Assembly: GCF_001427785.1 (NCBI RefSeq)
Contig: NZ_LMHM01000017.1
Coordinates: forward strand, 407,727 to 471,726
Length of the DNA stretch: 64,000 bases
From: Lysobacter sp. Root690
Lineage (GTDB): Bacteria > Pseudomonadota > Gammaproteobacteria > Xanthomonadales > Xanthomonadaceae
Direction: 5' to 3'
Part shown: piece by piece, positions 5,058-25,801 of the stretch
Layout of the letters: each line of letters opens with the position of its first letter
Numbering within the stretch: the first letter of the stretch is position 1
Translations under genes and position numbers: made by a program
The notes under the pieces: model-generated
Database searches by the model: none
What the model saw: only the letters and a program-made list of their open reading frames with translations
Told to the model about the DNA's origin: nothing

Positions 5058-5068
5058 GGTCGGTTCTC

Positions 5069-6439: not shown

Positions 6440-6449
6440 CAGTGGGATC

Positions 6450-9414: not shown

Positions 9415-10183
9415 ACGCGCCCCCCTTGCCCGGGTTCAGCCGCATGACGTCGCGTTCCTGCACGTAACGCAGTTTGCCGCGGATATTGATCAGGCCTTTG
9501 GGCGTGGCGGTGACCCACTTGCCACCGAGCCTGACCTGGGTGCTCGACCCGCTGGTCGCACCGTAGGTGTCGAGTTGGAAGTAATCGGCGAACGCCTGGG
9601 CGATGCTGGGTTTGACCGGATTGGATTCGTGCAGCGCGCGCCAGTAATAGGGGGCGTCGGCAGTGGATCTCAAATCGGTGATCCGGACACCGTTGCGATC
9701 GGTGTCGCTGTAGATCCAGTTCGGCACGGCGGCGTTGCAACCCCATATCTTGACGATCGCGCCGGGCGCGAACAGGCTGCGGATGCGCTCGCGGTAGTGC
9801 GTATACGGGCTACGGATGAGGTCGTCGGTGAAGATCATGCCGGCCTCGGTCTGCAGGGTGGTCAGGTACGACGAGCGGCCGCGCATGGCGACGCGCAGTC
9901 GATCCTGATACAGCGCCGGATCCGAGTAGCCCAGTGCCAGTCCGGAGCCAAAGGCGTGCGAATAGATATGCAGCGCCTTGAGTTTGTAGCCCAGGCGAGA
10001 ACCGAACAGCAGGGCGAAGAACGCGTCCCGGCGTTCGGCCGAATGCAGGGAAATGCGCTTGGGGTCGATCGCCGACAGCTCGGTGCTGGCCAGATCGTCG
10101 GCGAAAGCACGGAAACTACCGAGGTCGCCCCCGCGGCCGTACACCACCATGGCACCTTCAGCGGACATGCGCGTCTCCGCCAT
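9392..10183 (-). CDS. Candidate DUF4347/caspase-clan-like protein, first gene of the vgrG island
   Basis: The product is 263 residues with no signal peptide. Two motifs stand out: HIYSHAFGSGLAL (72-84) and VKIWGCNAA (144-152). A strand-His-Gly motif followed by a strand-GC motif is the signature of the DUF4347 and CHAT/C80 caspase-hemoglobinase fold, giving H76 and C149 as candidate catalytic residues. The rest (YGRGGDLGSFRAFADDLAS near the start) fits an alpha/beta sandwich. I infer a cysteine-peptidase-like effector or processing enzyme; loss of activity cannot be excluded. It is the promoter-proximal gene of the leftward island. An alternative ATG five codons in (10168) is equally plausible. 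Confidence 0.7.
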   Translation of the reverse strand: MAETRMSAEGAMVVYGRGGDLGSFRAFADDLASTELSAIDPKRISLHSAERRDAFFALLFGSRLGYKLKALHIYSHAFGSGLALGYSDPALYQDRLRVAMRGRSSYLTTLQTEAGMIFTDDLIRSPYTHYRERIRSLFAPGAIVKIWGCNAAVPNWIYSDTDRNGVRITDLRSTADAPYYWRALHESNPVKPSIAQAFADYFQLDTYGATSGSSTQVRLGGKWVTATPKGLINIRGKLRYVQERDVMRLNPGKGGAYAVHHPR

Positions 10184-11248: not shown

Positions 11249-13735
11249 ATGCCGCTGGGTCGACTGCTCAATATCAACCAGGTCCTCGCCGGCATCCGTC
11301 CGGCGCCGGCCGCGCAGCCGATCAAGCTGCCCGGCGGGATCGTGGTGCCGGCGCCGGTCGCGCCGGCCGTGGTGGTCGCCCCGCCGGCCGCCCCGCCGCC
11401 CGCCGCTGCGCCGCCTGTCGCCGCGCCCGCGCCGGCCGTGCGCGTGGCGCCGCCGTTCATTCCCGGCGCGGTGCGGGTCAATCCGGCGATCCTGCGCGCG
11501 CAGCCGGCGATCGTCGCGCAACTGGAAGGCCGCACCCTGCGCCCGCGCTTGAACGACCTGCGCCCGGACCTGTTTCCGATCAAGAGCGGCGGCGGCTTCG
11601 GTCGCGGTGAATCGCAGCACCCGATCAGCCCCACCCAGACTCCGGACGATCGTTGCCTGTATGAAAGTCCGAACAACCCGCAGCAACGTTATTGGCTGCC
11701 GCGCTATCGCCTGCGCAACGCCAACGGCCGCTACGAAGTCACCGTCGCCGAAGGCCAGAACGGCCTGTGGGCGGTGAGCCTGGGCCTGGAAACCTATCCC
11801 GCGCCGGAGATCGCCGATGCCGCGCGCACCGCGCAGATGCTCGAAGTCACGCGCGGCGCATCGGTGACCTACCGCGTGCCCGGCACCGCGATCGAACAAC
11901 GCCTGCCGGCCGGCGAAGTGCAGAAGGACGCGACCGGTTGCGTGGTGATGCTGCAGCTGAGCCTGGCCGATCGCGACGGCCTGCTGCGCGCGTTCATGAG
12001 CAACGACGCGCAATGCAAGCTGGTGCTGTCGCGCGGCTTCACCGTCGCGGTGCCGTTGCCGGCGGGCACCGCGCCCGACGTGCCCAAGCGTCAGCTGATG
12101 ATGGTCAAGGGTCAGATGCAGCTGGCGCGCGCGCCGCTGGAAAGCGCGCAGTTGATGTCGCGCGCGGCGGTGGTCGATGCGAGCATGGTGGCGAAGCCGG
12201 CGGTGACGCTCGATCCAGGCATCACCGCCAAGATGTCGGCCTCGCTTGAGCCGATGCGCATCGCACCGATGCGCGCGGTCGGGGTCAAGCCACCGGTGTC
12301 GCGCATTCCGATCTCGACGATCAAGGCGCGCCGTTTCGACGGCACCCCGATCATCGTCCAGCCCGAGCCGATGCCCGACGACGTGCCGCCGCCGCCCGCG
12401 CCGGAAACGCGTTACGAAATCTCCAACCAGGTGCAGGACTGGGCGGTCGCGTTGTTCTTCGAACCGCAGCTGCATCCGTATCTGTACCCGGCCGGCAGCG
12501 CCAACGGGCCGCAGGCCAGCCGCTGGGTCGTGCATGCGCTGCGCTATCCGGCCGGCAGCGGTCGCAGCCATGCGTATTTCCAGGACTTGAACGATCCGGC
12601 GCGGATCTTTTACCTGCCCGACGCGTTCAAGCTGGCGCGTCGCAGCGAAGCGCCGCATGCACCCTCGCTGGTGTTCCAGGTCGATCAGGGCGACAACGCC
12701 GAGCAGGTGATGGTCGACCTGACCTGCGAAGTGCGTCCGGTCACCGACGGCGAGCGCCTGCTCGCCGCGCGCCGCGACCTCGCCGACAAAGTGCCGGCGA
12801 GCGCGGCCAATCCCAATCGCGAATTCGAACTGCGCCTGCTGCGCGCCAAGTCGAGCCTGCAGATGGCGGTGCTGCGCAACGGCGCGGTGCGTTCGGAAAC
12901 CGTGGCCGCGACGATCGACTGGGACAACGGCTTCACCGTCAACGAGCGCTTCGAGTTCAAGGATTTCCAGGACGTGTTCGGCGTGTTGATGGCCGCGTCC
13001 AATTCCAACCTGCTGCAGGGCAGCGTGGTGGTGACCACCGGCATCAACGAGAACGTGATGGTGCCGGTCAAGCTCAACTTCGCCGACATGGAGGGCGAGT
13101 TGTTCCAGTCGATCGAAACGCCCGATCCTCAGACCGGCGCGGTCGCGGTCAAGCTGCTCAACGCGACCGAGAGCAAGCTGCGCATCACCCAGCTGCCGAC
13201 CTGGATCACCCGCGGCGAAGGATTGGTGGTCGGCCGAATCGAAGGCCTGGACCTGAGCCAGCCGGTCGAGGTCGAACCCGAACAAAGCCTGCAATTCACC
13301 GTGCAGCCCACCGATATCTTGAGCGGCAGCGCGCCGGCCGATGCGATCTTCAACACCGCTTCGGTGCGCAGCGTCCCCGACGGCGAGGCGATCCTCAAAT
13401 ACACCCTGGACGACACGATCGATCAGGAAACCTTCCGCGCCGTCACCGTAATGACCGCGCCGGAAGTGCTGGAGAACATCGCCACTGGTTCGTCCGGCGG
13501 TCCGATCCTCAACATCATCGTCGAGTTCCGCGGCAACCGCCGGGTGGTGCTGGGCGAGAACAACCAGAGCGTCGATATCGAAGTGCCGGTGCCGCTGATG
13601 GACATCCTGTTGCGCAAGGACAGCGAAGGCTTCTACGAATACCGCCAGACGGTGGTGTACAAGTCCGGCCAGAAAGCGCCGACGACGCCGTGGCGCCGCG
13701 ACGATGCGGGCGTGTTGTTCGTGACCGCGGTCTGA
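11249..13735 (+). CDS. Unrecognised 828-aa protein, first large gene of the unknown cluster
   Basis: A good AAGGAG ribosome site precedes the ATG. Residues about 25-75 form a Pro/Ala/Val-rich linker (repeated APP/AAP), the rest is mostly beta-strand-like with few hydrophobic runs, and no signal peptide or transmembrane segment is visible. Near residues 230-265 it has the motif shared by other products of the cluster: a VVMLQLSLADRDGLLRAF-type strand and helix, then a strand ending in VAVP. The C-terminal ~80 residues (PILNIIVEFRGNRRVVLG, then YRQTVVYKSGQ) resemble the beta-sandwich repeats of the three downstream paralogs. The stop is 3 bp before the next start, so the genes are co-translated. 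I cannot assign a function. Confidence 0.85.
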   Translation: MPLGRLLNINQVLAGIRPAPAAQPIKLPGGIVVPAPVAPAVVVAPPAAPPPAAAPPVAAPAPAVRVAPPFIPGAVRVNPAILRAQPAIVAQLEGRTLRPRLNDLRPDLFPIKSGGGFGRGESQHPISPTQTPDDRCLYESPNNPQQRYWLPRYRLRNANGRYEVTVAEGQNGLWAVSLGLETYPAPEIADAARTAQMLEVTRGASVTYRVPGTAIEQRLPAGEVQKDATGCVVMLQLSLADRDGLLRAFMSNDAQCKLVLSRGFTVAVPLPAGTAPDVPKRQLMMVKGQMQLARAPLESAQLMSRAAVVDASMVAKPAVTLDPGITAKMSASLEPMRIAPMRAVGVKPPVSRIPISTIKARRFDGTPIIVQPEPMPDDVPPPPAPETRYEISNQVQDWAVALFFEPQLHPYLYPAGSANGPQASRWVVHALRYPAGSGRSHAYFQDLNDPARIFYLPDAFKLARRSEAPHAPSLVFQVDQGDNAEQVMVDLTCEVRPVTDGERLLAARRDLADKVPASAANPNREFELRLLRAKSSLQMAVLRNGAVRSETVAATIDWDNGFTVNERFEFKDFQDVFGVLMAASNSNLLQGSVVVTTGINENVMVPVKLNFADMEGELFQSIETPDPQTGAVAVKLLNATESKLRITQLPTWITRGEGLVVGRIEGLDLSQPVEVEPEQSLQFTVQPTDILSGSAPADAIFNTASVRSVPDGEAILKYTLDDTIDQETFRAVTVMTAPEVLENIATGSSGGPILNIIVEFRGNRRVVLGENNQSVDIEVPVPLMDILLRKDSEGFYEYRQTVVYKSGQKAPTTPWRRDDAGVLFVTAV

Positions 13736-13738
13736 GCC

Positions 13739-15553
13739 ATGTCCTTTTCCGGTCATCCCGATTGGCGCGCGCCGATGCAGATCGGCGAACGTATCGCCTA
13801 CGCCGCTTACGATCGGCCCGGCGCGTTCGCGCTGCCGCCGACCCAGTTGTCGGCGCAGACGCTCGACGAAACCCCACCGCTGCGCCTGGACATCTTCCAG
13901 CAGGACCGCGGCAGCGCCGGACTGGAGCGTTATTCGATTCTGTCGTTGGCGTTCGCCGCGCAGTTCGGCCTCGACGCCGCGCGTCAGGCCGCGTTCGACG
14001 CCGCGCAGAACGTGCGCCTGTCGCCGCTGCCGGTCGAAGGCGGCTGGCTGCGTTTGAACGCGGTGCAGGCGCTGGACTTGCCGGCATCGCTCGGCGAATT
14101 GCTGCCGCTGGACGCGGCGAGCCTGGGCTCGATGGGCCTGGCGCTGCGCATGGACAGCGCGGCGACCGATCTGTTCGTCGCCGCCCTTCAACGAGGCTTG
14201 CTCGCGGTCAGCGCGCAAGCCTGGCTGCGGGTGCGCGGCGTCGCCGATCGCCTGCCGCTGACGATGAGCTTCGATCCGGCCGCGCTGTTGGTGGCGATCA
14301 AGTCGCTCGGCAGCGGCGCGACCACGATCGATCACGCGTTGCTGCGGCAACGGCTGATCGACGCGCCGCAGACCCTGGGCCTCGGCCTGGCGGCGAGCTC
14401 CGGCGACATCCTCAAGCAACCGCTGGCCGACGCGGTGCTCGATCGCATCGTCGCGCGCTTCGCCACGCCGCAGCCGTCCGCGGCCGATGCGCCGACCGGT
14501 GTGCGCCTGGTGTTCGACGAAGCGTCGATGCGCGGCGGCACGGTGCAATGGAATCTCGTCGAGCCGCTGCTGACGCCGCGTTTGTTCGTGATCGAGGCCG
14601 ATCCGCTCGGTCCGCTGCGCAGCCTGCCCGGCGGCGAACTGCACGACAGCGTGGTGCGCCGTCACGACGTGCGCGCGCTGGCCAGCGGCTGGCGCACGGT
14701 GACGGTGCGGCCGAACCTGCCGCAGCGGCGCATCGGCGTGGTCTCGACCCAGGTCGAACTGCAACTGCCGGCCAAGCCGCCGGCGCGAATGTTCACGATC
14801 AAGACCAGCACGCCGTTGGCCGCGTCGGATCGTCCGATCACGGTCGATCTGCGCCTGAGCCCCAAGGAAGCGCTGAGCTATCAATGGCAGACCACCGCGG
14901 TCGTGCTCAGCGACGGCCGCGCCGAATCGATCAAGGGCCCGGTACGTAAATCCGAGCGCGAGCATCTGCTGATCGACGCCGAGGATTTCGGCCTGCGTTT
15001 CGTGCCGATCGAAGCCGAGCCGGCGTTTCTGGCCCAGGCCGACGTCGAGGTCGAATGTGTGGGCACGCGCAAGGGCCGGGCGTGGTCGGTGCGCGGCATG
15101 CTCGACGACGTGTCGCCGAGCCTGGCGTTCGCGATCCCGGCCGATGTCCAGGATGCGCAACTGCGCGCCAGCGCGCGTTCGCGCCAGGACGGCCGCAGCT
15201 GCGCGATGGCGCCGATCGACGCCGACAGCCTGCGCCTGGACGCTTTCAGTTTCGAAGGCGCCGGTTCGCGCGAACTCGAAGCGGTCTGCGAATTCGACGA
15301 CGCCGCAACGCAGGTTCTGATCGAAATCGCGCCGGAAGACGGCACCGAGCAGCCGGCACGACGCCGTCTGCTGAAATTCACCCGCAACACCCCACGCGCG
15401 CATTGGACCTGGCTTGCGCTGTCGCCGTTCCGCTCCGGCTATCGCTGGCGCTGGACCGCGCAGTCGCCCTGGTCGGACGTGCTGCAACCCGATACGCCGC
15501 TGCGACTGCACAGCAGCGACGCCTCAAGGACGAACAACGGAGCAGGGACATGA
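13739..15553 (+). CDS. Unrecognised 604-aa protein of the unknown cluster
   Basis: This gene starts 3 bp after the previous stop, and its own stop overlaps the next start as ATGA, so three genes form a tight unit. The product has no signal peptide or transmembrane helix. Around residues 130-180 it carries the motif shared across the cluster, here GSMGLALRMDSAATDLFVAA followed by a strand and RLP. The C-terminal half is strand-rich and alternates hydrophobic and charged residues, suggesting stacked beta-sandwich domains. The protein ends in a WTWLALSPFRSGYRWRWT segment and a polar tail. No catalytic motif is apparent and I recognise no family. Confidence 0.85.
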   Translation: MSFSGHPDWRAPMQIGERIAYAAYDRPGAFALPPTQLSAQTLDETPPLRLDIFQQDRGSAGLERYSILSLAFAAQFGLDAARQAAFDAAQNVRLSPLPVEGGWLRLNAVQALDLPASLGELLPLDAASLGSMGLALRMDSAATDLFVAALQRGLLAVSAQAWLRVRGVADRLPLTMSFDPAALLVAIKSLGSGATTIDHALLRQRLIDAPQTLGLGLAASSGDILKQPLADAVLDRIVARFATPQPSAADAPTGVRLVFDEASMRGGTVQWNLVEPLLTPRLFVIEADPLGPLRSLPGGELHDSVVRRHDVRALASGWRTVTVRPNLPQRRIGVVSTQVELQLPAKPPARMFTIKTSTPLAASDRPITVDLRLSPKEALSYQWQTTAVVLSDGRAESIKGPVRKSEREHLLIDAEDFGLRFVPIEAEPAFLAQADVEVECVGTRKGRAWSVRGMLDDVSPSLAFAIPADVQDAQLRASARSRQDGRSCAMAPIDADSLRLDAFSFEGAGSRELEAVCEFDDAATQVLIEIAPEDGTEQPARRRLLKFTRNTPRAHWTWLALSPFRSGYRWRWTAQSPWSDVLQPDTPLRLHSSDASRTNNGAGT

Positions 15554-16248
15554 GCTCGAGCGAAAACACCACCGCCGACAGCGGCGACAGCTACGAAAAC
15601 CTGCGCGGCGTGCTGGTCGCGCCGGGCGACCAGGCGACGACCTGGTATTACCGCGCCGCCGCGCCGGCGCTGGCGACCGACGCCAACGGCCGCGTCCAGT
15701 TCAACATGATCAATGCCGGGCCGATGACGATGTTCGCCTGCACCGGCATGTGGGGCGTGGCGACCGCGACCTTGGACGCGGTGCGCGCCGATCTGGCCGC
15801 GCGCGCCGGCGTGGCGGTGGCGCAGTTGAATCTGTTGCCGGCGCCGGTCGAAGTCGGCGAAGTCAGCCTGATGCTCGGCGACGGCCAGGGCGCGTATGTG
15901 CAACTGGGCAAGACCCGTTCGTCGGGCGCGCCGCCGTACCACGCCGCGTTCAACATCATGCTCGACGCCGATCAGGCCGGGCGCGTGCGCAAGGCCTTGA
16001 GCGGTGAGCGCGGCTGGCTGGAGTTGCGTTACGCGATCACCGCCGCCGCGCCGACCCGGCATACCGCGAGTACGACGACAACCGACGCGATCGATGTCGA
16101 CGTGTCCTTGCGCGCCGACGGCGAGCAGGCCGATGCGGGCTTGAGTCTGCGCAGCCAGGTCAGCAGCTATGCCGAACGCGGCCAGCAGCAACAGCAAACA
16201 CAACACGTATCGGCGGATGCCGCGGACTGGGGATTGCCCAAGCCATGA
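15550..16248 (+). CDS. Unrecognised 232-aa protein of the unknown cluster, minimal form of the shared module
   Basis: The ATG overlaps the preceding TGA. The product looks like a stand-alone copy of the N-terminal module of the three downstream paralogs: an aromatic motif TTWYYRAAAPAL (about residues 30-41; the paralogs have WYYMP or FWYLP), a strand-helix block around MFACTGMWGVATATLDAV, a VSLMLGDGQGAYVQL hairpin, then AAFNIMLDADQAGRVRKAL and a strand ending in AAP. The last 60 residues are polar and Gln-rich (QQQQQTQ) and probably disordered. There is no signal peptide. It could be an accessory or assembly subunit for the larger paralogs; this is inference from shared architecture. Confidence 0.8.
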   Translation: MSSSENTTADSGDSYENLRGVLVAPGDQATTWYYRAAAPALATDANGRVQFNMINAGPMTMFACTGMWGVATATLDAVRADLAARAGVAVAQLNLLPAPVEVGEVSLMLGDGQGAYVQLGKTRSSGAPPYHAAFNIMLDADQAGRVRKALSGERGWLELRYAITAAAPTRHTASTTTTDAIDVDVSLRADGEQADAGLSLRSQVSSYAERGQQQQQTQHVSADAADWGLPKP

Positions 16249-16649
16249 ACATCCGATCTTGATCGTGTCGCGACCGGTTGTGAGCTGAGCGAACGCCGCC
16301 ACCGGCCGCGCTGCGAATCGTAAAGGCGCGATCTTGCGCCAGCGGCGTTTGCCGCGCGATGCAACGCAAACGCCCGCGACCGGTGAATCGGTCGCGACGC
16401 TAGCCGTCTCTTCGGCAACGACGATGTGGGTCTCTACCAGGCCCGCAGCGGGCGAGTATTGCCTTGTGGTTTTGTTGGAAAACAGCTGAAAAATAGCACT
16501 TTTAACGTGTCCGGTACGAAGCGGTGGTGGCGTTCTAAAGATTCGAACCGCACAACGTTCGCCCGCGGAACATCGTCGCTGTAAGCGCGCAAGCCAAGGC
16601 GCGACGGAATCAAACGAACTCAGGATTTATCAGGATAAGGAGCAAGTCC
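16249..16649. other. 400-bp gap inside the unknown cluster, possible internal promoter
   Basis: No gene fits here. The left half is G/C-rich with several short inverted repeats (for example CGCGACCGGT/ACCGGT and GCGGCGTTTGCCGC-like sequence between about 16268 and 16395). The stretch 16480-16550 is locally AT-rich, ending near a good AAGGAG site for the next gene. I infer a promoter for the second half of the cluster; no clear -35/-10 pair can be asserted. Confidence 0.4.
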
Positions 16650-18803
16650 ATGCTTAAGATCGACAACGTTGACACCATCCTCGACCACGTGGTTTACGGC
16701 GACGATGCCAACGACTTCACCTACTACATCATGCCGAACACGCCGAATTTCGCGCGCATGGCCAGCGGCGGCCTGGCGCTGCGCTTCGTCGAGTACGGCC
16801 AGATCCGCGAGGATGGCGGCAAGAAGTTCGGCGGCTTCATCGCCTTCGACACCGAACTGGCCGTCGCCGCCGACGTGCAGACCAAGATCACCGCCGAACT
16901 GCAGAAGAAGCTGGCCGAGAAGTACAAAGGCAAGAACGCGCCCAAGGTCGCGATCGCGCCGGTGACCTGGACCGACGGCACCGTCGAGCTGCTGCTGACC
17001 GAGGGCGGCGCGCTGGTCGAGAAGATCCGCGGCGCCGGCAAGCCGTCGATCTACGGCAAGAACGTCGCCTCGTTCATGGTCGAGCTGACCGAACTGGGCA
17101 CGGCGATCTTCAAGGAAACCCTGAGCACCGGTTCGGCCTCGGCGGTGCAGGTCGTCTACAAGATGAACTGCTACATGCGTCTGCCGGAAATGAAGGCCTG
17201 GGGTACCTGGAACGCCTCGGAGTTCTACAGCTTCTTCCAGGACATCAACACCGAAGACAACGTCTGGCGCGAAGACAGCTACACCGAGGTCATCAGCTCC
17301 AGCCGCTGGAAGAACGACATCACCAAGACCCACTTCGAGTTCGTGCAGGCGCCCAACCTCAGCGCCGAGGACAACGCCAAGCTCGAGGCCGACATCCGCG
17401 CGATCATCAACAAGCAGCTCGAAGCGGCGGTGCAGCGCAACTTGCTCAAGGAAATCGCCGACGTCGATCCGAACACCAAGGATCTGCGCGAAGAGCAGGA
17501 TATCGAGGACATCCGCCGCACCATCAACAAGAGCCAGATCGCCAACGTGCGGGTGGAGTGGAGCGAGGCCAAGGCGGTCATCGTCAACCGCAACCCGCAG
17601 GGCATGCTGCCGACGATCACTTCGCTGACCGACGACAAGAAGAAGCCGCTGAAGTGGGAGGACTACTACTCCAAGATCAACCTGGACGAGTTCCTCAAGA
17701 CCGTGCAGGTGGTGATGCGGGTCAACGCCGACTTCGCCAACCTGCCGATCCACAGCGTCGAGGTCAAGATCCGCTATCCGTACGGGCCGAACAAGAAGGT
17801 CCAGGAGTTCGTCTTCACCAAGCCCGACGACGTGGCCAAGTTCGAAGCCTTCGTGTTCGAGGGCAAGCGCGACTTCACCTATCAGGTCACGGTCAATTAC
17901 AAGGGCGCGACGTTCAAGCAGGTGTCGGAGGAGATCAAGACCGACGACACCAACCTGACGATCAATGTCGACGATCTCGGCGTACTGGCGCTGGACATCG
18001 GCCCGGGCGACATCGATTTCGCCCAGGTGCCGCGCACCCAGATCACCGTGCGCTACAAGCACGGCAAGCAGCCGGTCGAAGCCAAGTTCAACATGACCGC
18101 GGCCACGCCGAACTTCGCCCTGCGCAAGATCATCGGCACGCCGCGCACCGAAGACATCGACCTGGAGTTCCTGTACACGCTGGCCGACGGCCGCCAGGTC
18201 AAGAAGCTGGCCAAGCAGCAGGCCAAGGAACTGTACGTCGACGATCCGTTCTCGGCGTCCAAGACGGTCAGCTTCCGCGCCGCCGGCGATCTGTCCGCCG
18301 AGATCGCGTCGATCACGGTCGAGGCGAGCTACACCGACACCGCCAACAAGTACAACCAGAAGACCATCGTGACGCTGTCCAGCGACATGACCTCGTTCGA
18401 CTGGACCTTCCCGGTGGTCGACGAAACCCTGGGCGAGGTGAAGTACGCGGTCACCACCTTGTTCGCCGACGGCACCAGCAAGGAAGAGAACGAGAAGGTC
18501 GCGACCCGCTCGACCATCATGGTCGGCAAGAAGCTCGACGCGCTGGAAGTGGCGGTGGTGCCGGACCTGCTGAACTGGGACGAGCTGAAGATGGTCAGCG
18601 TGGCGCTGTCGCACGGCACCAAGCGCATCGATCTGCGCTTCAAGCCCGGCGACGAGGAAAAGAGCTGGAAGCTGCCGCTCACCGACGGCGAAGAGCCCGA
18701 GTACAAGGCCACCATCACCTACTTCCTCACCGACGGCAAGCGCAAGGTCGTGGGCCCGGAAACCAAGACGGATCTGTCGCTGTTCCTGGAACTTCCGGCT
18801 TGA
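16650..18803 (+). CDS. Paralog 1 of the unknown cluster (717 aa), modular beta-repeat protein
   Basis: AAGGAG precedes the ATG. Residues 1-210 form the N-terminal module shared with the genes at 18915 and 21418: FTYYIMP (23-29), GGFIAFDTEL (61-70), IYGKNVASFMVELTELG (134-150) and a VQVVYKMN strand (167-173). A helical charged region follows (about 215-300). A second shared module has NPQG near residue 314 and an I-x-LD-EFL motif. Four beta-sandwich-like repeats of about 85 residues occupy the C-terminal part, marked by VEVKIRYPYG, ITVRYKHG, ITVEASYTD and VSVALSHG. No signal peptide or transmembrane segment is seen. Lys/Asp/Glu content is high, suggesting a soluble protein. Function is unknown. 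Confidence 0.88.
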   Translation: MLKIDNVDTILDHVVYGDDANDFTYYIMPNTPNFARMASGGLALRFVEYGQIREDGGKKFGGFIAFDTELAVAADVQTKITAELQKKLAEKYKGKNAPKVAIAPVTWTDGTVELLLTEGGALVEKIRGAGKPSIYGKNVASFMVELTELGTAIFKETLSTGSASAVQVVYKMNCYMRLPEMKAWGTWNASEFYSFFQDINTEDNVWREDSYTEVISSSRWKNDITKTHFEFVQAPNLSAEDNAKLEADIRAIINKQLEAAVQRNLLKEIADVDPNTKDLREEQDIEDIRRTINKSQIANVRVEWSEAKAVIVNRNPQGMLPTITSLTDDKKKPLKWEDYYSKINLDEFLKTVQVVMRVNADFANLPIHSVEVKIRYPYGPNKKVQEFVFTKPDDVAKFEAFVFEGKRDFTYQVTVNYKGATFKQVSEEIKTDDTNLTINVDDLGVLALDIGPGDIDFAQVPRTQITVRYKHGKQPVEAKFNMTAATPNFALRKIIGTPRTEDIDLEFLYTLADGRQVKKLAKQQAKELYVDDPFSASKTVSFRAAGDLSAEIASITVEASYTDTANKYNQKTIVTLSSDMTSFDWTFPVVDETLGEVKYAVTTLFADGTSKEENEKVATRSTIMVGKKLDALEVAVVPDLLNWDELKMVSVALSHGTKRIDLRFKPGDEEKSWKLPLTDGEEPEYKATITYFLTDGKRKVVGPETKTDLSLFLELPA

Positions 18804-18846
18804 TTCTGCCGACCTGATTCAAGCAGCACGACCTCAGCCGCAAGCG

Positions 18847-18873
18847 CGGCGGGCCCGGTCATCGGGCCCGCCG
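18847..18873 (+). other. Perfect 11-bp hairpin between paralog genes
   Basis: CGGCGGGCCCG (18847-18857) pairs perfectly with CGGGCCCGCCG (18863-18873) around a five-base loop. There is no T tract after it, so it is not a standard intrinsic terminator. It lies 44 bp after one paralog and 42 bp before the next, where it could block 3' exonuclease or partly attenuate transcription. Confidence 0.6.
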
Positions 18874-18914
18874 TCGCCAACACTTATCACGCTTGACTCG
18901 GAAGGAGTCCGATC

Positions 18915-21194
18915 ATGCTTCTCCTCGACAGCCGCACTCGCGAGATCAACGGCATCTCGGTCTTCCCCGACCATGCCGATCCCGAGCAGTGGTATTACAT
19001 GCCGCTCAATCCGCACCTGACCACGGTGCGCGACAAGACCCTCGGCGTGGATGTGCCCCAGTTCCTGCTGATCGGTTTCCGCGGCGACGCGGGCACCGGC
19101 GGCTTTCTTAATTTCGACTGCAACCTCGGCGCCACGCAGAGCCAGATCGACGATCTGGCCCGCGAGATCGCCAACTCCGAAAACCTGCGCAACAAGCCGC
19201 GGATCGCGCCGGTGCCGCTGGAAGACGGCGGCGTCAAGCTGATGATGCTCGGCAAGGCCACCGGCGATGTCGCTCCGACCGCCGGCCCGGGCCCGCAGTT
19301 CGTGCTCAAGATCGACCAGTCGGCCAAGCCGGCGCTTTACGGCGCCAACCAGGCTTCGTTCTCGGTGCGTCTGGATCAGGACGGCTACACCGTGATGGAG
19401 CAGTGCCTGGAAGGCGAGATCCTGCCGGTGGCGGTGATCTATTCGCTGGATTTCCTCGGCCTGCGCCCGGCCTACAACATCAGTCTGAAGATCGATTGGG
19501 ACCGTGTGCAAAAGCACATGGACGAAAGTTTCTCCGGCGGCAACATGTTCTTCTCCACCGAGATCGGCAGGGCGGTCGACGAGCTGGTCGAAAGCCGCGC
19601 GATCGTGCTGGAGGCCGACACCTTCGTCGCCGAAAGCGAGGACACCAAGGGCATTATCGACCGCCGCGACGCCGCCCTGGCGCAGGTGCGCAACATGATC
19701 ACCGATGCGTTCTTCCAGGCCAGCCTGCCGCCGTGGACGCCGGAGAAGAAGTCCGATTTCGAACGCGGCCTGGATGCGCTGGGCAAGTTCGCCAGCCAGT
19801 CCTCGGCGATGGCCGCCGGCGGTCCGATCGGCGCGCTGATGCCGAGCTTCAGCTACAAGCGCATGGACTACACGCGCATCGACAAGAAGAAGCTCAACGT
19901 CAATTTCTCCGAGCGCGTCGCGGTCAAGCGTTCGATCTATCCGCAGGGCCACCTGGCGGCGCTGTTCAAGACCATCCGCGAAGGCAACGTGCCGCGCGAC
20001 CGCCTGGTCAAGCAGATCAGCCTGGACAACGATTTCTTCAAGAAGCGCCGGGTCAAGGTGATTTCGCGCGCCGACCTGGCCGCCGACGACATCGGCAGCC
20101 TCAACGTGCGGGTGCGCTACGGCGACAAGGCGCAGAACGCGCTGCTCGGCGCCAGTCAGGGCGATGCGAGTTTCGAATGGCTGAGCCAGCTCGACCGCGG
20201 CCAGATGAAGCGCGAGGTGCAGGTCGAGTACGAGGTCAACTTCAAGGGCGTGGACGCGGCCGAGCGGCCGACCAAGCTTAAGTCGAAGGTGCAGACCTAC
20301 GACGTGGAAAACGTCGAGATCATCCCGCGCGACCTGTACACGATCAACACCGTGCCGGTGTTCGCCGAGAACTTCCCGTGGGAACGCTACAGCTCGGTCG
20401 ATGTGTTCCTGCGTTATCGCGACCCGGCCAACAAGATCAATCAGAACGATCTGGTGCGGCTGACCAAGGAGTCGCAGTCGGGCGCATGGAAGATGTTCAT
20501 GCTCGACCAGAGCAAGACCGCCTATGAAGTGCGCATCGTCTTCCATGGCATCAGCGGTGGCGACACGGTGCGCGACTGGACCACGCTGGACGAGCCGCAG
20601 GTGTCGATCCGCAACCCGTTCCAGACCCGACGGGTGGTGCAGGTGGTGCCGAACTTCAACTGGAACGAGGTGCAGGAAGCCTTCGTCGATCTGCGCTACG
20701 TCGACAAGACCAACGGCGTGCAGGAAGAAATGCAGATGTCGTTCCAGGAAGGCGCGGCCGCTCAGACCTTCGCCGTGGACATGCGCAATCCCGAGATCAA
20801 GGGCGTGTTCTACAGCGTCAGCATCCTGTACAAGGACGGGCGCGACATCGAGGAGATTCCCGAGTCGGTGACGAACGGCAATCGCATCATGTTGAAGGCC
20901 GGCATGAAGGGACGGCGCATCGTCACGGTCAAGCCGCCCGCGGATTTCGCCAAGCGCAAGATGCGCAAGGCCAAGGTCTCGCTGCGCTTCGAGGACTTCG
21001 CCGGCGGCCTGTCGTTCGCCGAGGATTTCGAGTTCACCGACGGCCAGGCCTCGGGCGAGTTCGAATACGACTACCTCGACCCGGCGCGCATGCGCTACGA
21101 GTACAAGGCCAGCTATCTGCTCGAGAACGGCACCAACAAGGCCGGTAATTGGGTGGCCAGCGATGCGACCGATCTGGTGTTGAAGATGGCCTGA
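18915..21194 (+). CDS. Paralog 2 of the unknown cluster (759 aa), modular beta-repeat protein
   Basis: A GAAGGAG site precedes the ATG. The N-terminal module has PDHADPEQWYYMPLNP (18-33), GGFLNFDCNL (62-71), a VKLMMLG strand, ALYGANQASFSVRLDQDG (140-157) and VAVIYSLDFLGLRP (172-185). A helical, charged segment with VESRAIVLEADTF follows. The second module carries YPQGHL near residue 340 and ISLDNDFFKK near 368-377. The C-terminus has four beta repeats, each opening with an RY/RF-type strand: VRVRYGDK, VDVFLRYRD, AFVDLRYVD and VSLRFEDF. There is no export signal or catalytic motif. It clearly shares ancestry with the flanking paralogs; its role, structural or otherwise, is unknown. Confidence 0.88.
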   Translation: MLLLDSRTREINGISVFPDHADPEQWYYMPLNPHLTTVRDKTLGVDVPQFLLIGFRGDAGTGGFLNFDCNLGATQSQIDDLAREIANSENLRNKPRIAPVPLEDGGVKLMMLGKATGDVAPTAGPGPQFVLKIDQSAKPALYGANQASFSVRLDQDGYTVMEQCLEGEILPVAVIYSLDFLGLRPAYNISLKIDWDRVQKHMDESFSGGNMFFSTEIGRAVDELVESRAIVLEADTFVAESEDTKGIIDRRDAALAQVRNMITDAFFQASLPPWTPEKKSDFERGLDALGKFASQSSAMAAGGPIGALMPSFSYKRMDYTRIDKKKLNVNFSERVAVKRSIYPQGHLAALFKTIREGNVPRDRLVKQISLDNDFFKKRRVKVISRADLAADDIGSLNVRVRYGDKAQNALLGASQGDASFEWLSQLDRGQMKREVQVEYEVNFKGVDAAERPTKLKSKVQTYDVENVEIIPRDLYTINTVPVFAENFPWERYSSVDVFLRYRDPANKINQNDLVRLTKESQSGAWKMFMLDQSKTAYEVRIVFHGISGGDTVRDWTTLDEPQVSIRNPFQTRRVVQVVPNFNWNEVQEAFVDLRYVDKTNGVQEEMQMSFQEGAAAQTFAVDMRNPEIKGVFYSVSILYKDGRDIEEIPESVTNGNRIMLKAGMKGRRIVTVKPPADFAKRKMRKAKVSLRFEDFAGGLSFAEDFEFTDGQASGEFEYDYLDPARMRYEYKASYLLENGTNKAGNWVASDATDLVLKMA

Positions 21195-21232
21195 CGCGCG
21201 CTGCAACAGCCGGTCTGGCGACGCTCTCGGTC

Positions 21233-21319
21233 CGTCATCCCCGCGAAGGCGGGGATCCAGAGACTTCAGAGTCATGTCGCGATGGAGCCCTGGATCCCCG
21301 CCTTCGCGGGGATGACGGG
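21233..21319. repeat. REP-like perfect 29-bp inverted repeat, family A
   Basis: The arms 21233-21261 and 21291-21319 are perfect inverted copies beginning CCGTCATCCCCGCGAAGG, separated by 29 bp. This CGTCATCCCCGCGAAGGCGGGG unit is a well-known intergenic palindrome type in Xanthomonadales genomes. It lies in the 223-bp gap between paralogs 2 and 3 and would form a very stable RNA hairpin within the operon transcript. Confidence 0.85.
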
Positions 21320-21417
21320 ACGGAAAGGACGGCAGCGGCGGCGTTACGCATACAAGGAAATGTTTCCCTCGCGCGGTGCTCTGCACGTCGGGAGTTCACG
21401 ATCTACAGGAGTTCGTC

Positions 21418-24400
21418 ATGCTCAGTCTCGAAAAGCCGCTTTCCATCGACGGCATCACCGTGTTCCGCGACCACGCCGACAAGGGCCAGTTCTGGTACCT
21501 GCCCGGCCCGGTCACGCTGGCCACGCGTCAGCCCGATGGGCGCAAGGAATTCAGTTTCCTCAAGTACCGCGTCGCCGATGCCACCGCAGCCGACAAGGGC
21601 GGCGGCTTCGTGATGTTCGTGACCACCTTGCAGCTGTCGTCGTCGATGGAGTCGAAGATCATCGGCCGGCTCAACGCCGAACCGGGCGTGCAGTTGCCGG
21701 TGCGGCTGACCTGCGCCACGTTCGAGGAAGGTTCGGTGCAGTGCATCGCCTTGAACGCGCAGGGCGGTGGCGGCACCTCGGCGCAACCGGCCGCGCCGGG
21801 CACGTTCAACGCGGTCGAACACATTCTCGGCGCGACCGTGCCGTCGATGGACGCGGCCAATCGCGCCGCTTTCAGCCTGAGCCTGTCGTCGGAAGGCGCG
21901 ACGATTCTCGAATCCGCGCTCAGCGACGGCATGACCCCGATCGGGGTGATCTACAACTTCAAGTACCTGGCGATGCGGCCGGCGTTGAAGGTCACCATCA
22001 CCGCCGACTTCGAACGCATCTACAACCATTTCAGCGTCAGCCTGGAAGGGCAGTACGCGTGGTTCAAGGCCGGCATCGACGCGGCGTTCGAATCGCTGGT
22101 GCAGAACGGCGTGATCGATATTCAGGTCGAGGCGTTCACCGACGGCGACGACAAGCGCGACCAGGAAAAGTGGGCGCTGGATTTCTTCAAGAACGATCTG
22201 CTGACCAAGTGGTTCGAACCGACCCTGGTGCCGGGAAAGCTGGCGACCGATGCGGCCCATGCCGGAACCGGTACGGGCACAGGCACCGGAACCAATCCGG
22301 GCGGCACGGGCGGTACCGGTGGCGGCACGGGCGGCGGCACTGGTGGAACCGGTGGCGGCACGGGCGGTACGGGTGGCACGGGTGGAACCGGTGGAACCGG
22401 TGGCGGCACGGGCGGCACGGGTGGTGGCACCGGCGGAACCGGTGGCGGTACAGGTGGTACGGGTGGCGGCACCGGTGGAACCGGTGGCAGTACGGGCGGT
22501 ACGGGCGGCAGCACCGGTGGAACCGGCGGTAGCACGGGCGGCACGGGCGGAAGCACCGGCGGAACCGGTGGCGGCACGGGCGGCACGGGCGGAAGCACCG
22601 GTGGAACCGGCGGCAGCACGGGCGGCACGGGTGGAAGCACCGGCGGAACCGCGCCCGGCGGCTTCAGCGGTACCAGCGGCGCCAGCGGCGGCGGCGCGAC
22701 TGGTGGCAGCAGCACCGGCACGGGCGGCACCACCGGCGGCACCGGCACCACCACGCCGCCAGCCCCGCAGATCCAACCGGCCGCGCTGACGGTCGAATCG
22801 CAATCGCCGACGCCGCTGCCCGCGGGTCAGGCGGTCACGCATACGCCGGCCGCGAACGGCCTGGCCGAAACCATCACCGTGACCGGTGCCGGCGCGGTGG
22901 TGAAGGTCGACGGACAGACCGTCGCCGCCGACGCGCAGGGCCGGGTCAACCTCACCGTCAATCCGGCTTCGGAAAAACTCATCGAAGTCGAATGGCCGGC
23001 GGCGACCCAGGAACAGACCTTCGGCCTGTTCTTCGATTTCGACAAACCCGCCGCGAGCGGCTGGATGATCAATCCGCCGTCGACGCAATACCGCGCCTAT
23101 GTCGAGAACACCACCACCGATCCGCGCTATCGCGACGCCTCGGGCACCTTGCGCATCGAAGGCGACGGCAACTGGACCGGCACCGAACGTGGCGCCGATC
23201 GTCTGGCCGCGTGGGTGCGCAGCCTGCCGGCGCCGCGCAACGTGCGGCTGGAAGCGTACGCGAGCCACGAGCATGCCAACAACGCCACCGAAGCGCAGCG
23301 CGTGACTTACAACCGCGCGCTGTCGCAGCGTCGTCTCGACGTCGCCGCGGCGGTGGTGCGCCGCGCCGGCGGCAACTTCACCGTCACCCCGGCCAACGCG
23401 CACGGCGACGTTCCGGCGAGCAGCCGGCCCGGCACGCATTCGACCATGGGCGGCGATCCCGACAATCGCGTCGTCCACGTGATCGGCCAAGTCGCCGGCG
23501 CCACGCCGAGTCGTTGGCGCGGCCGTCTGCGTCGTCCCGCGTCGGTCACGCCGACTCCGACTCCGACGCCTACGCCTACACCCACGCCGACGCCTACACC
23601 GACTCCCACTCCGACCCCGACGCCCACACCAACTCCGACTCCGACTCTGCCCACACCGCCGACCGCGGTCAGCCTGTCGCTCAAGCTCAAGTTCGTGCAT
23701 CAGGAAGAGCGCAAGAAATTGACCCTGCGCTACAACCGCGCCGAGGCCACGCGCCGCACTTACGCGCCGCAGGGTTTCTTCGGCCTGATGCTCGGCGATC
23801 TGCGCGACAAGTCGAAGTACTTCAAGGAAATCGATCTCGACGATCCGTTCTTCCGTCAGTTCGCGGTCGAGGCGAGCATGCCGATCGCGTTCGAACCGAT
23901 CGATCTGAAGTCGGCGCAGGTCGCGCTGGACTACGGCGACAAGAAGAAGCCGCGCGATCACAAGCACGCCGACTTCGTGTTCACGCCCGGCGAAACCGGA
24001 GTCAAGCGCTTCGAAGCGTTCATGAACGAGACCCGCGACATCGGTTACGACGCCGCGTTCCAATACCACTTCGATCCGCAGTCCGACTGGGCCGCCGACC
24101 GCAGCTCGTACACGATCCCGGCGGCCAAGACCGAAGACCGCACCTTGTTCGTCAACCCCTACGAGCACGTCGAGTTCCGTCAGATCACCGCGACCCCGGG
24201 CGACATCGATTGGGAAGTGGTCGAATCGATCGACGTGAAGTTGCAGGCGCGTGGCTACACCACGCCCGAGCCCAAGACCACGTTGACCCTGACCAAGACC
24301 TCCGGCCCGAAGACCTGGCGTCTGCGCGGCGCCAAGCCGGCTCCGGCCGATCGCGGCGTGACCTATCAGGTCATTCAACGGCGCAAGGGCGTGAGCCAGG

Positions 24401-24735
24401 CCGATCCGGCGTCGCCGCCGGTGGAAGTCGATGTGCCCGAGTTGATCGTGCACGACAGCTTCGAGGATGCGCTGCAGCTCGAGTTCATCCCGGTGTTCGA
24501 TCCGGCCATGGTCAAGCGCGTCTACATCGACGTGAAGTACGAAGACGGCGCCTATAAGCGCAACGAACGCATCGAGATGGCCGGCAGCCAGGCCGACCCG
24601 GTCAAGCTGCGCATCGCTTTGAAGAACGCGGACAAGCGCAAGTTCCGTCGCCGCTTCACCTTCGTCGGCATGCAGGGCCAGTTCGATCAGCGCGCCTGGG
24701 TCGACGAAACCGAAGAACTGATCGCGGTGCAGTGA
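21418..24735 (+). CDS. Paralog 3 of the unknown cluster (1105 aa) with inserted Gly-rich/OmpA-like/Thr-Pro block
   Basis: The start at 21418 has AGGAG at good spacing. Residues 1-280 match paralogs 1 and 2: DGITVFRDHADKGQFWYLPG (11-30), GGGFVMFVTTLQL (61-73), NRAAFSLSLSSEGATILESA (148-167) and IGVIYNFKYLAMRP (175-188). Residues about 283-446 are GGTGGS-type repeats. A small beta domain follows (about 450-560). Residues 576-695 resemble an OmpA-like domain: a strand VRLEAYASHEH, then YNRALSQRRLDVAAAVVRRAG and a terminal VHVIGQV strand. Residues 711-743 are Thr-Pro repeats. The paralog pattern then resumes (APQGFF near 783, IDLDDPFF near 807, then beta repeats). No signal peptide is present, which is odd for an OmpA-like protein. 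Confidence 0.88.
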   Translation: MLSLEKPLSIDGITVFRDHADKGQFWYLPGPVTLATRQPDGRKEFSFLKYRVADATAADKGGGFVMFVTTLQLSSSMESKIIGRLNAEPGVQLPVRLTCATFEEGSVQCIALNAQGGGGTSAQPAAPGTFNAVEHILGATVPSMDAANRAAFSLSLSSEGATILESALSDGMTPIGVIYNFKYLAMRPALKVTITADFERIYNHFSVSLEGQYAWFKAGIDAAFESLVQNGVIDIQVEAFTDGDDKRDQEKWALDFFKNDLLTKWFEPTLVPGKLATDAAHAGTGTGTGTGTNPGGTGGTGGGTGGGTGGTGGGTGGTGGTGGTGGTGGGTGGTGGGTGGTGGGTGGTGGGTGGTGGSTGGTGGSTGGTGGSTGGTGGSTGGTGGGTGGTGGSTGGTGGSTGGTGGSTGGTAPGGFSGTSGASGGGATGGSSTGTGGTTGGTGTTTPPAPQIQPAALTVESQSPTPLPAGQAVTHTPAANGLAETITVTGAGAVVKVDGQTVAADAQGRVNLTVNPASEKLIEVEWPAATQEQTFGLFFDFDKPAASGWMINPPSTQYRAYVENTTTDPRYRDASGTLRIEGDGNWTGTERGADRLAAWVRSLPAPRNVRLEAYASHEHANNATEAQRVTYNRALSQRRLDVAAAVVRRAGGNFTVTPANAHGDVPASSRPGTHSTMGGDPDNRVVHVIGQVAGATPSRWRGRLRRPASVTPTPTPTPTPTPTPTPTPTPTPTPTPTPTPTPTLPTPPTAVSLSLKLKFVHQEERKKLTLRYNRAEATRRTYAPQGFFGLMLGDLRDKSKYFKEIDLDDPFFRQFAVEASMPIAFEPIDLKSAQVALDYGDKKKPRDHKHADFVFTPGETGVKRFEAFMNETRDIGYDAAFQYHFDPQSDWAADRSSYTIPAAKTEDRTLFVNPYEHVEFRQITATPGDIDWEVVESIDVKLQARGYTTPEPKTTLTLTKTSGPKTWRLRGAKPAPADRGVTYQVIQRRKGVSQADPASPPVEVDVPELIVHDSFEDALQLEFIPVFDPAMVKRVYIDVKYEDGAYKRNERIEMAGSQADPVKLRIALKNADKRKFRRRFTFVGMQGQFDQRAWVDETEELIAVQ
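22264..22755 (+). repeat. In-frame Gly-Gly-Thr/Ser coding repeat
   Basis: About 490 bp of imperfect 9- to 18-bp units (GGCGGCACGGGCGGTACC-like, GGTGGAACC, GGCAGCACG) encode a GGTGGS linker inside paralog 3. Synonymous variation between units shows the tract is selected at protein level and is not a CRISPR array. Such tracts can change length by slippage. Confidence 0.85.
23548..23646 (+). repeat. In-frame Thr-Pro coding repeat
   Basis: Thirty-three codons alternate Thr and Pro (ACG/ACT/ACC/ACA with CCG/CCC/CCT), giving a rigid extended linker between the OmpA-like domain and the second shared module of paralog 3. Synonymous codon variation limits exact repeat length. Confidence 0.85.
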
Positions 24736-24736
24736 C

Positions 24737-25678
24737 ATGAAGAACGCCGCTTACGTGATGCCGTTCGAAGTCACCGGGGCGTTGCCCGCGCCGGTCGCCG
24801 CGACCTTGCGGCGGCTGCGCGCGGTGCTGCCGGCGCAGGCCGATGCGGCGCAGGCGATGTTGGAACGCGTGCTCGCGCCGTTGGCCAAGTCGATCTGGCC
24901 GGAAATGGCCTGGCGTTTCAGCAGCCTGACCAACACCGGCGTGCCGGTGGAGTTCGCCTGGACCACGCGCGAAGCCGCGGTGCGCTGGACCGCCGAAGTC
25001 GCCGCGCCGGAAACCGACGACGGCGAACGATTGGCGATCGCCGCGCGCGCATTGGACTGGCCGCTCGATTCGTCGCCGGCCGATCTGGCGATGTGGTTCG
25101 CGCATCAGCGCGATTGCCGCTTGAAATTCGGCGCCTGGGCGTCGGCGCGTCACGGCGACGGCACCGCGACCAAGTTGTACGCGGATCTGCCGTCGGGCCG
25201 CCTGCCGGCGGCGTGGCAAGGCCGTCACCCGGTGCTCAATTCGACCTTGTTGTTCTGGCGCATGGCCGGGGTCAATCCCGATGGCAGTGTCGAGTTCTAT
25301 GCGCGCGCTCACGACCTCGATCTGAGTGGGCTGGCGTCGCTGGCACAGACGGTGCTCGGCGATGCGACGCCGATGATGAGCCAGTTGGCGGCGTTGATGC
25401 CGGGCAGCGATCTGCCGCGGCCGTCGGGCCTGAGTCTGGCCCTGTCGGCGAACGGCGAACCGCGGGCGCTGACCTGGTTCACCTTCGCCAAGGCGATCTA
25501 CCGCGACGATGCGCAGGTCGCCTCGGTATTGCGCGGCTTAGGCAGCGACGTGTCGGCGCGGGTGTACGAAGCGTTGTCGTCCGGTCCGGACGACGGCCGC
25601 TGGCGTCACGGCATGATCGGCGTGGGCGGCGATATCGCCGGCAAGGCCTGGGTGCAGTGCGGGGTGCGGCCGACTTGA
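24737..25678 (+). CDS. Unrecognised 313-aa protein closing the unknown cluster; five-fold helix-strand-strand pattern
   Basis: The ATG begins one base after the stop of paralog 3, so the two are coupled. The sequence reads as five successive units of one amphipathic helix followed by a beta hairpin: hairpins around VEFAWTTREAAVRWTAEV, RLKFGAWASA...TATKLYADL, LLFWRMAGV...GSVEFYARA, GLSLALSANGEPRALTWFTF and HGMIGVGGD...KAWVQCGV. An (alpha-beta-beta) x 5 order is what ABBA/PT-barrel aromatic prenyltransferases show. This comparison rests on predicted secondary structure only; I see no conserved prenyl-diphosphate site I can name. There is no signal peptide. The gene is followed after about 100 bp by a strong terminator. 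Confidence 0.82.
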   Translation: MKNAAYVMPFEVTGALPAPVAATLRRLRAVLPAQADAAQAMLERVLAPLAKSIWPEMAWRFSSLTNTGVPVEFAWTTREAAVRWTAEVAAPETDDGERLAIAARALDWPLDSSPADLAMWFAHQRDCRLKFGAWASARHGDGTATKLYADLPSGRLPAAWQGRHPVLNSTLLFWRMAGVNPDGSVEFYARAHDLDLSGLASLAQTVLGDATPMMSQLAALMPGSDLPRPSGLSLALSANGEPRALTWFTFAKAIYRDDAQVASVLRGLGSDVSARVYEALSSGPDDGRWRHGMIGVGGDIAGKAWVQCGVRPT

Positions 25679-25774: not shown

Positions 25775-25801
25775 AAAGGCCCGGCGCAATGCCGGGCCTT
25801 T
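25775..25801. terminator. Bidirectional intrinsic terminator between the unknown cluster and btuB
   Basis: AAAGGCCCGGC and GCCGGGCCTTT form an 11-bp stem around GCAAT, flanked by A-rich and T-rich ends on both strands. It separates two convergent units, the rightward cluster ending at 25678 and the leftward btuB ending at 25869. Confidence 0.9.

What the first reader, a model, noticed from the sequence alone, without database searches (positions are those of the whole stretch)
11249..25678. Seven-gene cluster of unrecognised, mutually related proteins: candidate undescribed system
Seven co-directional genes with overlaps or short gaps are bounded by a divergent region and a strong terminator. 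None matches a family I know. Three products are clear paralogs and three upstream ones share a motif with them. No signal peptides, transmembrane segments or catalytic motifs are seen in the large proteins, which points to a soluble multi-component assembly. The cluster faces an orphan T6SS vgrG island, so export by that route is possible.
Basis: partly seen in the sequence, partly recalled or inferred. Interest (0 to 1): 0.9.

Follow-up and report, generated by a model that had tools for sequence, protein, structure and literature searches.

The report
Undescribed conserved protein-assembly operon with prenyltransferase
Seven neighbouring bacterial genes form an apparently undescribed system, found in scattered members of ten phyla, that joins a set of related large proteins to a tryptophan-prenyltransferase-like enzyme and, in many relatives, to a caspase or another protease.

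Summary
The cluster is real and conserved as a unit. All seven genes (A-G) keep order and orientation in 9 of 9 same-genus loci read. Relatives of E lie in 70 loci of nine bacterial phyla and one archaeal MAG; D-E-F order holds in 59 of 59 loci with all three, A-B-D-E-F in 42 of 44 with all five. B-F share one N-terminal domain; A shares it only weakly. E (modelled) adds tandem Ig-like domains.

New: 27 of 70 related loci hold a peptidase gene inside the block (caspase, trypsin, papain-like, subtilase), and 13 hold H, a small DxDDT terpene-cyclase-like gene, beside G. The window's cluster has neither.

My reading: a multi-subunit assembly modified by prenylation and, in many relatives, cut by a protease. 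The conserved system is well supported; its purpose is inferred. Interest 0.82.

The parts
11249..13735 (+). Gene A, 828 aa: Pro/Ala-rich N-terminus, then a region weakly related to the shared N-domain
   Evidence: ORF; conserved first in the block; hhalign to the E family 8e-5
13739..15553 (+). Gene B, 604 aa: divergent full-length relative of the E family
   Evidence: hhalign 6.9e-18 over 566 columns
15550..16248 (+). Gene C, 232 aa: N-domain only
   Evidence: hhalign 1.4e-16 over 205 columns; profile A1 matches it at 1e-3 here and down to 1e-5 in the genus
16650..18803 (+). Gene D, 717 aa: paralogue of E and F
   Evidence: phmmer; D-E-F order in 59 of 59 loci with all three
18915..21194 (+). 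Gene E, 759 aa: N-domain, low-confidence linker (residues 269-325), row of Ig-like domains
   Evidence: AlphaFold model, pLDDT 81.5, pTM 0.44; fold searches
21418..24735 (+). Gene F, 1105 aa (a GTG start at 21376 is possible): paralogue of E with a long insert in the linker
   Evidence: phmmer; hhalign 1.3e-79; alignment of 13
22777..23508 (+). Conserved insert in F with weak OmpA-like similarity, flanked by Gly/Thr-rich and Thr/Pro repeats
   Evidence: Alignment A10; 13 of 14 PDB matches at E up to 1 are outer-membrane or OmpA-like proteins by name, best only 0.045; Pfam OmpA in 1 of 13 members, at 0.15
24737..25678 (+). Gene G, 313 aa: divergent DMATS/ABBA aromatic prenyltransferase
25775..25801 (.). 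Terminator-like hairpin (11 bp) between G and the convergent TonB-receptor gene

Best explanation
The seven genes encode one conserved, probably horizontally spread system. B-F, and less surely A, are built on one N-terminal domain; in D, E and F it is followed by tandem Ig-like domains (modelled for E only) across a flexible linker that in F holds an inserted domain. I infer that they assemble into a large hetero-oligomer. G, a divergent prenyltransferase of the tryptophan type, is proposed to attach an isoprenoid to an aromatic residue, most likely Trp, of a subunit or a peptide; where H is present it would cyclise that isoprenoid. In many relatives a peptidase encoded inside the block (caspase, trypsin, papain-like or subtilase) is proposed to cut a subunit, most likely in a linker, and so mature or switch on the assembly. 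The window's version lacks peptidase and H, while its nearest relatives outside the genus have both, so it looks like a reduced form. Shown: gene content, homology, order, spread, fold of G, peptidase association. Inferred: complex formation, prenylation and its target, proteolytic gating, action at a membrane or cell surface.
For: Block conserved in order across phyla. Shared domain (weak for A). G is a DMATS-type fold with Glu72, Lys146, Tyr148 and Tyr188 in 23 of 23 members and Arg83 in 21 of 23. H in 13 loci, all 13 with G, with Asp-x-Asp-Asp-Thr in 10 of 10 aligned. Peptidase genes in 27 of 70 loci: caspase 14, trypsin 3, papain-like family 9, subtilase without papain part 1; caspase His and Cys motifs found in 19 and 20 of 23 caspase ORFs, two of the 23 being short pieces. 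Nearest relatives L051 and L052 have F-caspase-F-G-H. Published parallel for G plus H: NctPC, an ABBA-fold prenyltransferase fused to a cyclase resembling a monodomain terpene cyclase, acting on peptide Trp (PMC13290415, passages).
Against: No complex, cleavage or prenylation is shown. 43 of 70 loci, the window's cluster too, have no detected peptidase in the block, and 36 of 70 no detected G (contigs often end early, so these are not all true absences; in some Bacteroidota and Micropruina loci a second caspase stands where G would be). A Lys of the DMATS enzyme 6zrx is Glu in 22 of 23 G proteins, so G may be inactive or use another substrate. H's best PDB profile match is only 0.043, and 8 of its 10 matches are subtilisins at another stretch. 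The OmpA-like insert would suit a place outside the cytoplasm, yet no export signal is seen. The E model has pTM 0.44 and its N-domain fold is unidentified.
Confidence: 0.4

Rival explanations
1. A biosynthetic locus: G (with H in relatives) makes a prenylated or cyclised small molecule or peptide, peptidases trim a precursor, and A-F are carriers, scaffolds or self-protection proteins.
For: DMATS-type enzymes with solved structures act on Trp and related compounds (titles); G and H resemble the NctPC pair.
Against: No precursor peptide or other biosynthetic enzyme seen in the window's gaps; A-F are the core (D, E, F in 65, 69 and 64 of 70 loci) while G is detected in 34 and H in 13.
Confidence: 0.2
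2. A cell-surface or released scaffold (adhesive or envelope-spanning): Ig-like arms bind a target, F's insert anchors to the cell wall, proteases process subunits.
For: Tandem Ig-like domains; weak OmpA-like insert and Thr/Pro linkers in F; six distant homologues in two gammaproteobacterial genomes have hydrophobic signal-like N-termini, one next to a CsgG-family lipoprotein.
Against: No signal peptide or membrane segment in the window's proteins by hydropathy; OmpA-like similarity weak, best 0.045, Pfam OmpA in 1 of 13 at 0.15.
Confidence: 0.2
3. A protease-triggered cell-death or defence system in which the peptidase cuts a subunit to release a membrane-active part, as proteases do for bacterial gasdermins (recalled comparison; listing only).
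For: Patchy spread across phyla; interchangeable peptidases; flexible linker next to the N-domain; the L052 caspase matches the PADLOC caspase model at 5.5e-21.
Against: No PADLOC match for A-G; most loci lack a detected peptidase; fold of the N-domain not identified, no pore-forming family among the rows listed.
Confidence: 0.12
4. Cargo or accessory of the type VI secretion system or another contractile injector.
For: VgrG, DUF2169 and PAAR-like genes upstream; a T6SS sheath gene elsewhere in the genome; one related locus, L057, has a contractile-sheath gene downstream.
Against: The island's genes are not found in related loci, save one weak PAAR-like match; relatives of L057's sheath and tube found in no other of the 83 loci (single-sequence search within the flanks held).
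Confidence: 0.05

Closest known systems
DMATS-type aromatic prenyltransferases (IptA, S. coelicolor 5-DMATS, PriB, CymD)
   Different: About 14-17% identity in the structural alignments; one aligned Lys is Glu in 22 of 23; sits in a protein-assembly operon; activity unknown
NctPC-type prenyltransferase-cyclase pair acting on peptide tryptophan (PMC13290415, passages)
   Same: ABBA-fold prenyltransferase next to a small DxDDT terpene-cyclase-like protein (G and H)
   Different: G and H are separate genes; H is absent from the window; substrate unknown; similarity to NctPC or MstE sequences not tested
Bacterial caspases (Peptidase_C14)
   Same: Caspase domain far above the Pfam cut-off in the two scanned, L062 and L052, His and Cys motifs in most
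   Different: Encoded next to F inside this block in 14 of 70 loci; the window's cluster has none, its genome has two C14 genes on other contigs
Bacterial gasdermin operons with neighbouring proteases (recalled; listing only)
   Same: Exchangeable proteases beside a protein with a flexible linker
   Different: Several large paralogues, Ig-like arms, prenyltransferase; no gasdermin similarity seen
Complement C3/C4/C5 and alpha-2-macroglobulin
   Same: A row of Ig-like beta-sandwich domains in the E model; many listed Foldseek rows

Membership tests
DMATS/ABBA aromatic prenyltransferase (gene G) | PT-barrel fold | tested here: met
DMATS/ABBA aromatic prenyltransferase (gene G) | Significant sequence-profile relationship | tested here: met
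   Family profile to 6zrx 2.7e-7; 11 of 11 PDB sequences at E up to 1 are prenyltransferases. Pfam Trp_DMAT matches 9 of 23 members weakly, best 0.004, and not the window's own G
DMATS/ABBA aromatic prenyltransferase (gene G) | Catalytic Glu and full diphosphate-binding set (roles recalled) | tested here: inconclusive
   Glu72 and Lys146 23 of 23, Arg83 21 of 23, but Glu186 in 22 of 23 where 6zrx has Lys
DMATS/ABBA aromatic prenyltransferase (gene G) | Transfer of an isoprenoid to an aromatic acceptor | not testable with these tools
   Needs an assay
Class II terpene cyclase (gene H, relatives only) | Asp-x-Asp-Asp-Thr(-Ala) motif | tested here: met
   Asp80, Asp82, Asp83 and Thr84 in 10 of 10 aligned
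Class II terpene cyclase (gene H, relatives only) | Significant similarity to known members | tested here: inconclusive
   Best PDB match ent-copalyl diphosphate synthase 0.043, drimenol synthase 0.11; the other 8 of 10 are subtilisins at another stretch; no Pfam family in the two scanned at 0.1
Caspase (relatives only) | Peptidase_C14 domain with His-Cys dyad | tested here: met
   Pfam 68.2 and 83.8 bits against a cut-off of 21.4; motif scan found His in 19 and Cys in 20 of 23 ORFs, two of them short pieces
Papain-like peptidase (relatives only) | Gln-Cys-His-Asn in this order (roles recalled) | tested here: met
   Gln292, Cys298, His469, Asn485 invariant in 7 of 7 aligned
Papain-like peptidase (relatives only) | Significant similarity to a known peptidase family | tested here: inconclusive
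   No Pfam match; PDB profile gave only weak TetR matches
OmpA-like peptidoglycan-binding domain (insert in F) | Match over the curated Pfam cut-off | tested here: not met
   Pfam OmpA in 1 of 13 members at 0.15; PDB profile best 0.045
T6SS cargo island | Conserved linkage to vgrG | tested here: not met
   vgrG in 0 of 83 loci and 0 of 6 genomes read 13-15 kb upstream
Known anti-phage defence system | Match of A-G to PADLOC-DB models | tested here: not met
   0 of 7 proteins at E up to 0.1
Bacterial gasdermin operon | Gasdermin-fold pore domain in a subunit | tested here: inconclusive
   The N-domain was barely tested in the fold searches

The most novel reading that the evidence does not exclude
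A previously undescribed bacterial protein machine: about six subunits built on one new N-domain, the larger ones with Ig-like arms, are made membrane-seeking by attachment (and in some lineages cyclisation) of a terpenoid to a protein tryptophan, and are switched on by an exchangeable protease (caspase, trypsin, papain-like or subtilase): a rough bacterial counterpart of complement, passed between phyla.
Probability: 0.2. Interest if true: 0.95.

Novelty: categorically new. Interest (0 to 1): 0.82.

Why it matters
A block of about 14 kb, kept in order across nine bacterial phyla and seen in one archaeal MAG, has no name in the libraries searched. It links things that I did not find together in the papers searched: a family of large paralogous proteins, exchangeable proteases of several kinds including caspases, and a tryptophan-prenyltransferase-type enzyme, sometimes with a terpene-cyclase-like partner. 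If G modifies one of the large proteins, it would be an unexpected use of the DMATS-type fold; if the caspase cuts F or its neighbours, it would give bacterial caspases a new class of substrate. Both can be tested in laboratory strains.

Tried and rejected
Direct family scans of A-G gave nothing over a cut-off: Pfam (one sub-threshold MAM match in E), NCBIfam (sub-threshold matches, one of them G to a DMATS model at 0.066, which later proved right), PHROGs (best matches to F's repeat stretch), PADLOC, PDB sequences for E alone and for the E-family profile (none at E up to 1) and for the distant N-domain profile (best 0.36).

T6SS export: rejected as a conserved feature. Phage origin: no match in 50,697 phage records; a viral-contig scan gave 40 pattern matches, none confirmed. 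Plasmids: 3 of 72,556 records, the best at 25% identity.

A missing H or caspase elsewhere in the window's genome: H not found (the search finds H in 7 of 20 genus genomes, so it works). Two caspase-domain genes lie on other contigs; no link to the cluster was looked for. Small precursor ORFs in the window's gaps: nothing convincing.

Not found in print, by these ten searches. Only open-access papers are held. I read passages of PMC13290415; of all other papers I saw the listing and the start of the abstract.

Dropped or replaced: profile counts for B and C drifted into the E family and were not used. Greedy longest-ORF calling failed in GC-rich loci and was replaced. Order was tested on start positions only, with duplicated genes allowed; L092 and L109 failed, and L092 may be an ORF-start effect. 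The 70 loci are fewer than 70 genomes: four are from one Cohnella faecalis draft and two from one Caulobacteraceae MAG. Broken Cohnella copies counted as loci but were not put into the structure alignments.
Full report
What is there. The window lies on contig 17 of a 6.3-Mb genome of 18 contigs, completeness 100 and contamination 0.03; by gene E its nearest named relatives are Lysobacter species (92% identity to L046). Seven + strand genes, A-G, fill 11249-25678. A-B-C and F-G are tightly packed; C-D and E-F are 401 and 223 bp apart, so there may be more than one transcript. Upstream, across about 1 kb, a vgrG, PAAR-like and DUF2169 island runs the other way; downstream a hairpin separates G from a convergent TonB-receptor gene. 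dN/dS between the window and two Lysobacter loci is 0.16-0.62 in 13 comparisons, lowest for D and E.

It is a unit. In the genus, 15 of 20 genomes have three or four matches to the shared-domain profile at one place; 0 of 16 other genomes of the family and 0 of 24 of the order have any. The five genus members without it have the smaller genomes (4.4-4.7 Mb). In 9 of 9 same-genus loci read, all seven genes are present in order and orientation. In sparse samples of the class (with protein E) and the phylum (with profile A1), 3 of 274 and 2 of 299 genomes matched, the window's own included. A scan of 84,980 species genomes, by two short patterns confirmed with tblastn, returned 70 loci in nine bacterial phyla and one archaeal MAG; several phyla rest on one or two MAGs. 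With curated profiles, D-E-F order holds in 59 of 59 loci with all three, and A-B-D-E-F in 42 of 44 with all five, by a test on start positions. Genes detected in the 70 loci: A 54, B 50, C 32, D 65, E 69, F 64, G 34, H 13; many contigs end inside the block, so these are minima. On a quick tree of E, well-supported branches force at least five changes of the label Actinomycetota and three of Pseudomonadota, and a Nitrospira MAG falls among proteobacteria. That suits horizontal transfer; mis-binned MAG contigs and paralogues are not excluded.

What A-F are. D, E and F are paralogues. By profile comparison with the E family, F matches at 1.3e-79, B at 6.9e-18 over 566 columns, C at 1.4e-16 over 205 columns of the N-domain, and A only at 8e-5 over 95 columns. 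The model of E (45 sequences, mean pLDDT 81.5, pTM 0.44) shows an alpha/beta N-domain of middling confidence, a low-confidence linker at 269-325 and a row of confident beta-sandwich domains. That row matches many tandem Ig-like proteins, complement and alpha-2-macroglobulin among them, with low scores; I take it as architecture, not kinship. The N-domain fold is unidentified. F has an insert in the same linker, conserved from Lysobacter to Actinomycetota in 13 aligned, with weak OmpA-like similarity. Six very distant homologues in two gammaproteobacterial genomes have hydrophobic, signal-like N-termini that the window's proteins lack; one neighbours a lipoprotein with a CsgG-family match over the Pfam cut-off.

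What relatives add. Inside the block, 27 of 70 loci have a peptidase-like gene. In 14 it is a caspase, next to an F gene in each; the two scanned are far above the Pfam cut-off. In 3 it is trypsin-like, each over the Pfam Trypsin cut-off. In 9 it belongs to a family with invariant Gln, Cys, His and Asn in papain order (7 aligned), fused in L104 to a subtilase domain (L105 and L107 match over the same length). L106 has a subtilase-domain protein without the papain-like part. Thirteen loci have H beside G, all 13 with G; H has an invariant Asp-x-Asp-Asp-Thr in 10 aligned, but its matches to class II terpene cyclases are weak (0.043 and 0.11) among eight chance-level subtilisin matches. In the genus 7 of 20 genomes have H and the window's does not. 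The nearest relatives outside the genus, L052 and L051, have F-caspase-F-G-H, so the window's cluster looks as if it lost an F-caspase pair and H; this is read from the tree, not reconstructed.

How it may work. An ABBA-fold prenyltransferase with a partner resembling a monodomain terpene cyclase has a published parallel, NctPC, which puts a C20 group on a tryptophan and then cyclises it (PMC13290415, passages). I propose that G modifies an aromatic residue of a cluster product, giving it affinity for membranes, and that in many relatives a peptidase cuts a flexible linker to mature or activate the assembly. Shared design and conserved order make a common complex likely but do not show it. The purpose (conflict, surface structure or biosynthesis) is undecided; the rivals carry 0.05-0.2 each.

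What is not so. The vgrG island next door is not a lasting partner: nothing of it is found in 83 related loci, most with short upstream flanks, and in six same-genus genomes read 13-15 kb upstream only one weak PAAR-like match appears. A contractile-sheath gene lies beside one locus, L057, an archaeal MAG. No phage record matched and no viral contig was confirmed.

Verdict. I rate it categorically new because A-F and their operon match no family or system in the libraries and papers searched, while G belongs to a known superfamily. Interest 0.82.

Noticed in passing
window 4089-10183, - strand: T6SS-type island: PAAR-like, DUF2169, VgrG and ankyrin genes (Pfam) and a 263-aa gene of unknown family; a T6SS sheath gene lies on another contig of the genome (C16).
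   Followed up: partly
window about 21233-21319: Inverted repeat between E and F, seen by eye in the sequence; looks like a repeated palindromic element.
   Followed up: no
G000 C2:167530-168141 and C13:823993-824568: Two caspase-domain genes elsewhere in the window's genome.
   Followed up: no
L057 18904-23073: Archaeal MAG: a contractile sheath gene (Pfam) and tube-like and other injector-like genes (by eye) downstream of the block.
   Followed up: partly
L101 17803-19556: Mariprofundaceae: a Nal1-type trypsin-like protease gene and an Amidase_3 gene directly downstream of the block.
   Followed up: partly
L011 1394-2692: CsgG-family lipoprotein gene beside signal-bearing distant homologues of D-F.
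   Followed up: no
L079 and L084: Sphaerisporangium: a second, divergently oriented set of A- and D-like genes beside the main block.
   Followed up: no
L097, L098, L099, L110: Cohnella faecalis draft: several fragmented copies of the block, some head to head; broken genes or assembly faults.
   Followed up: no
L066 18655-23184: Caldilineaceae: four further A-like ORFs downstream of H.
   Followed up: no
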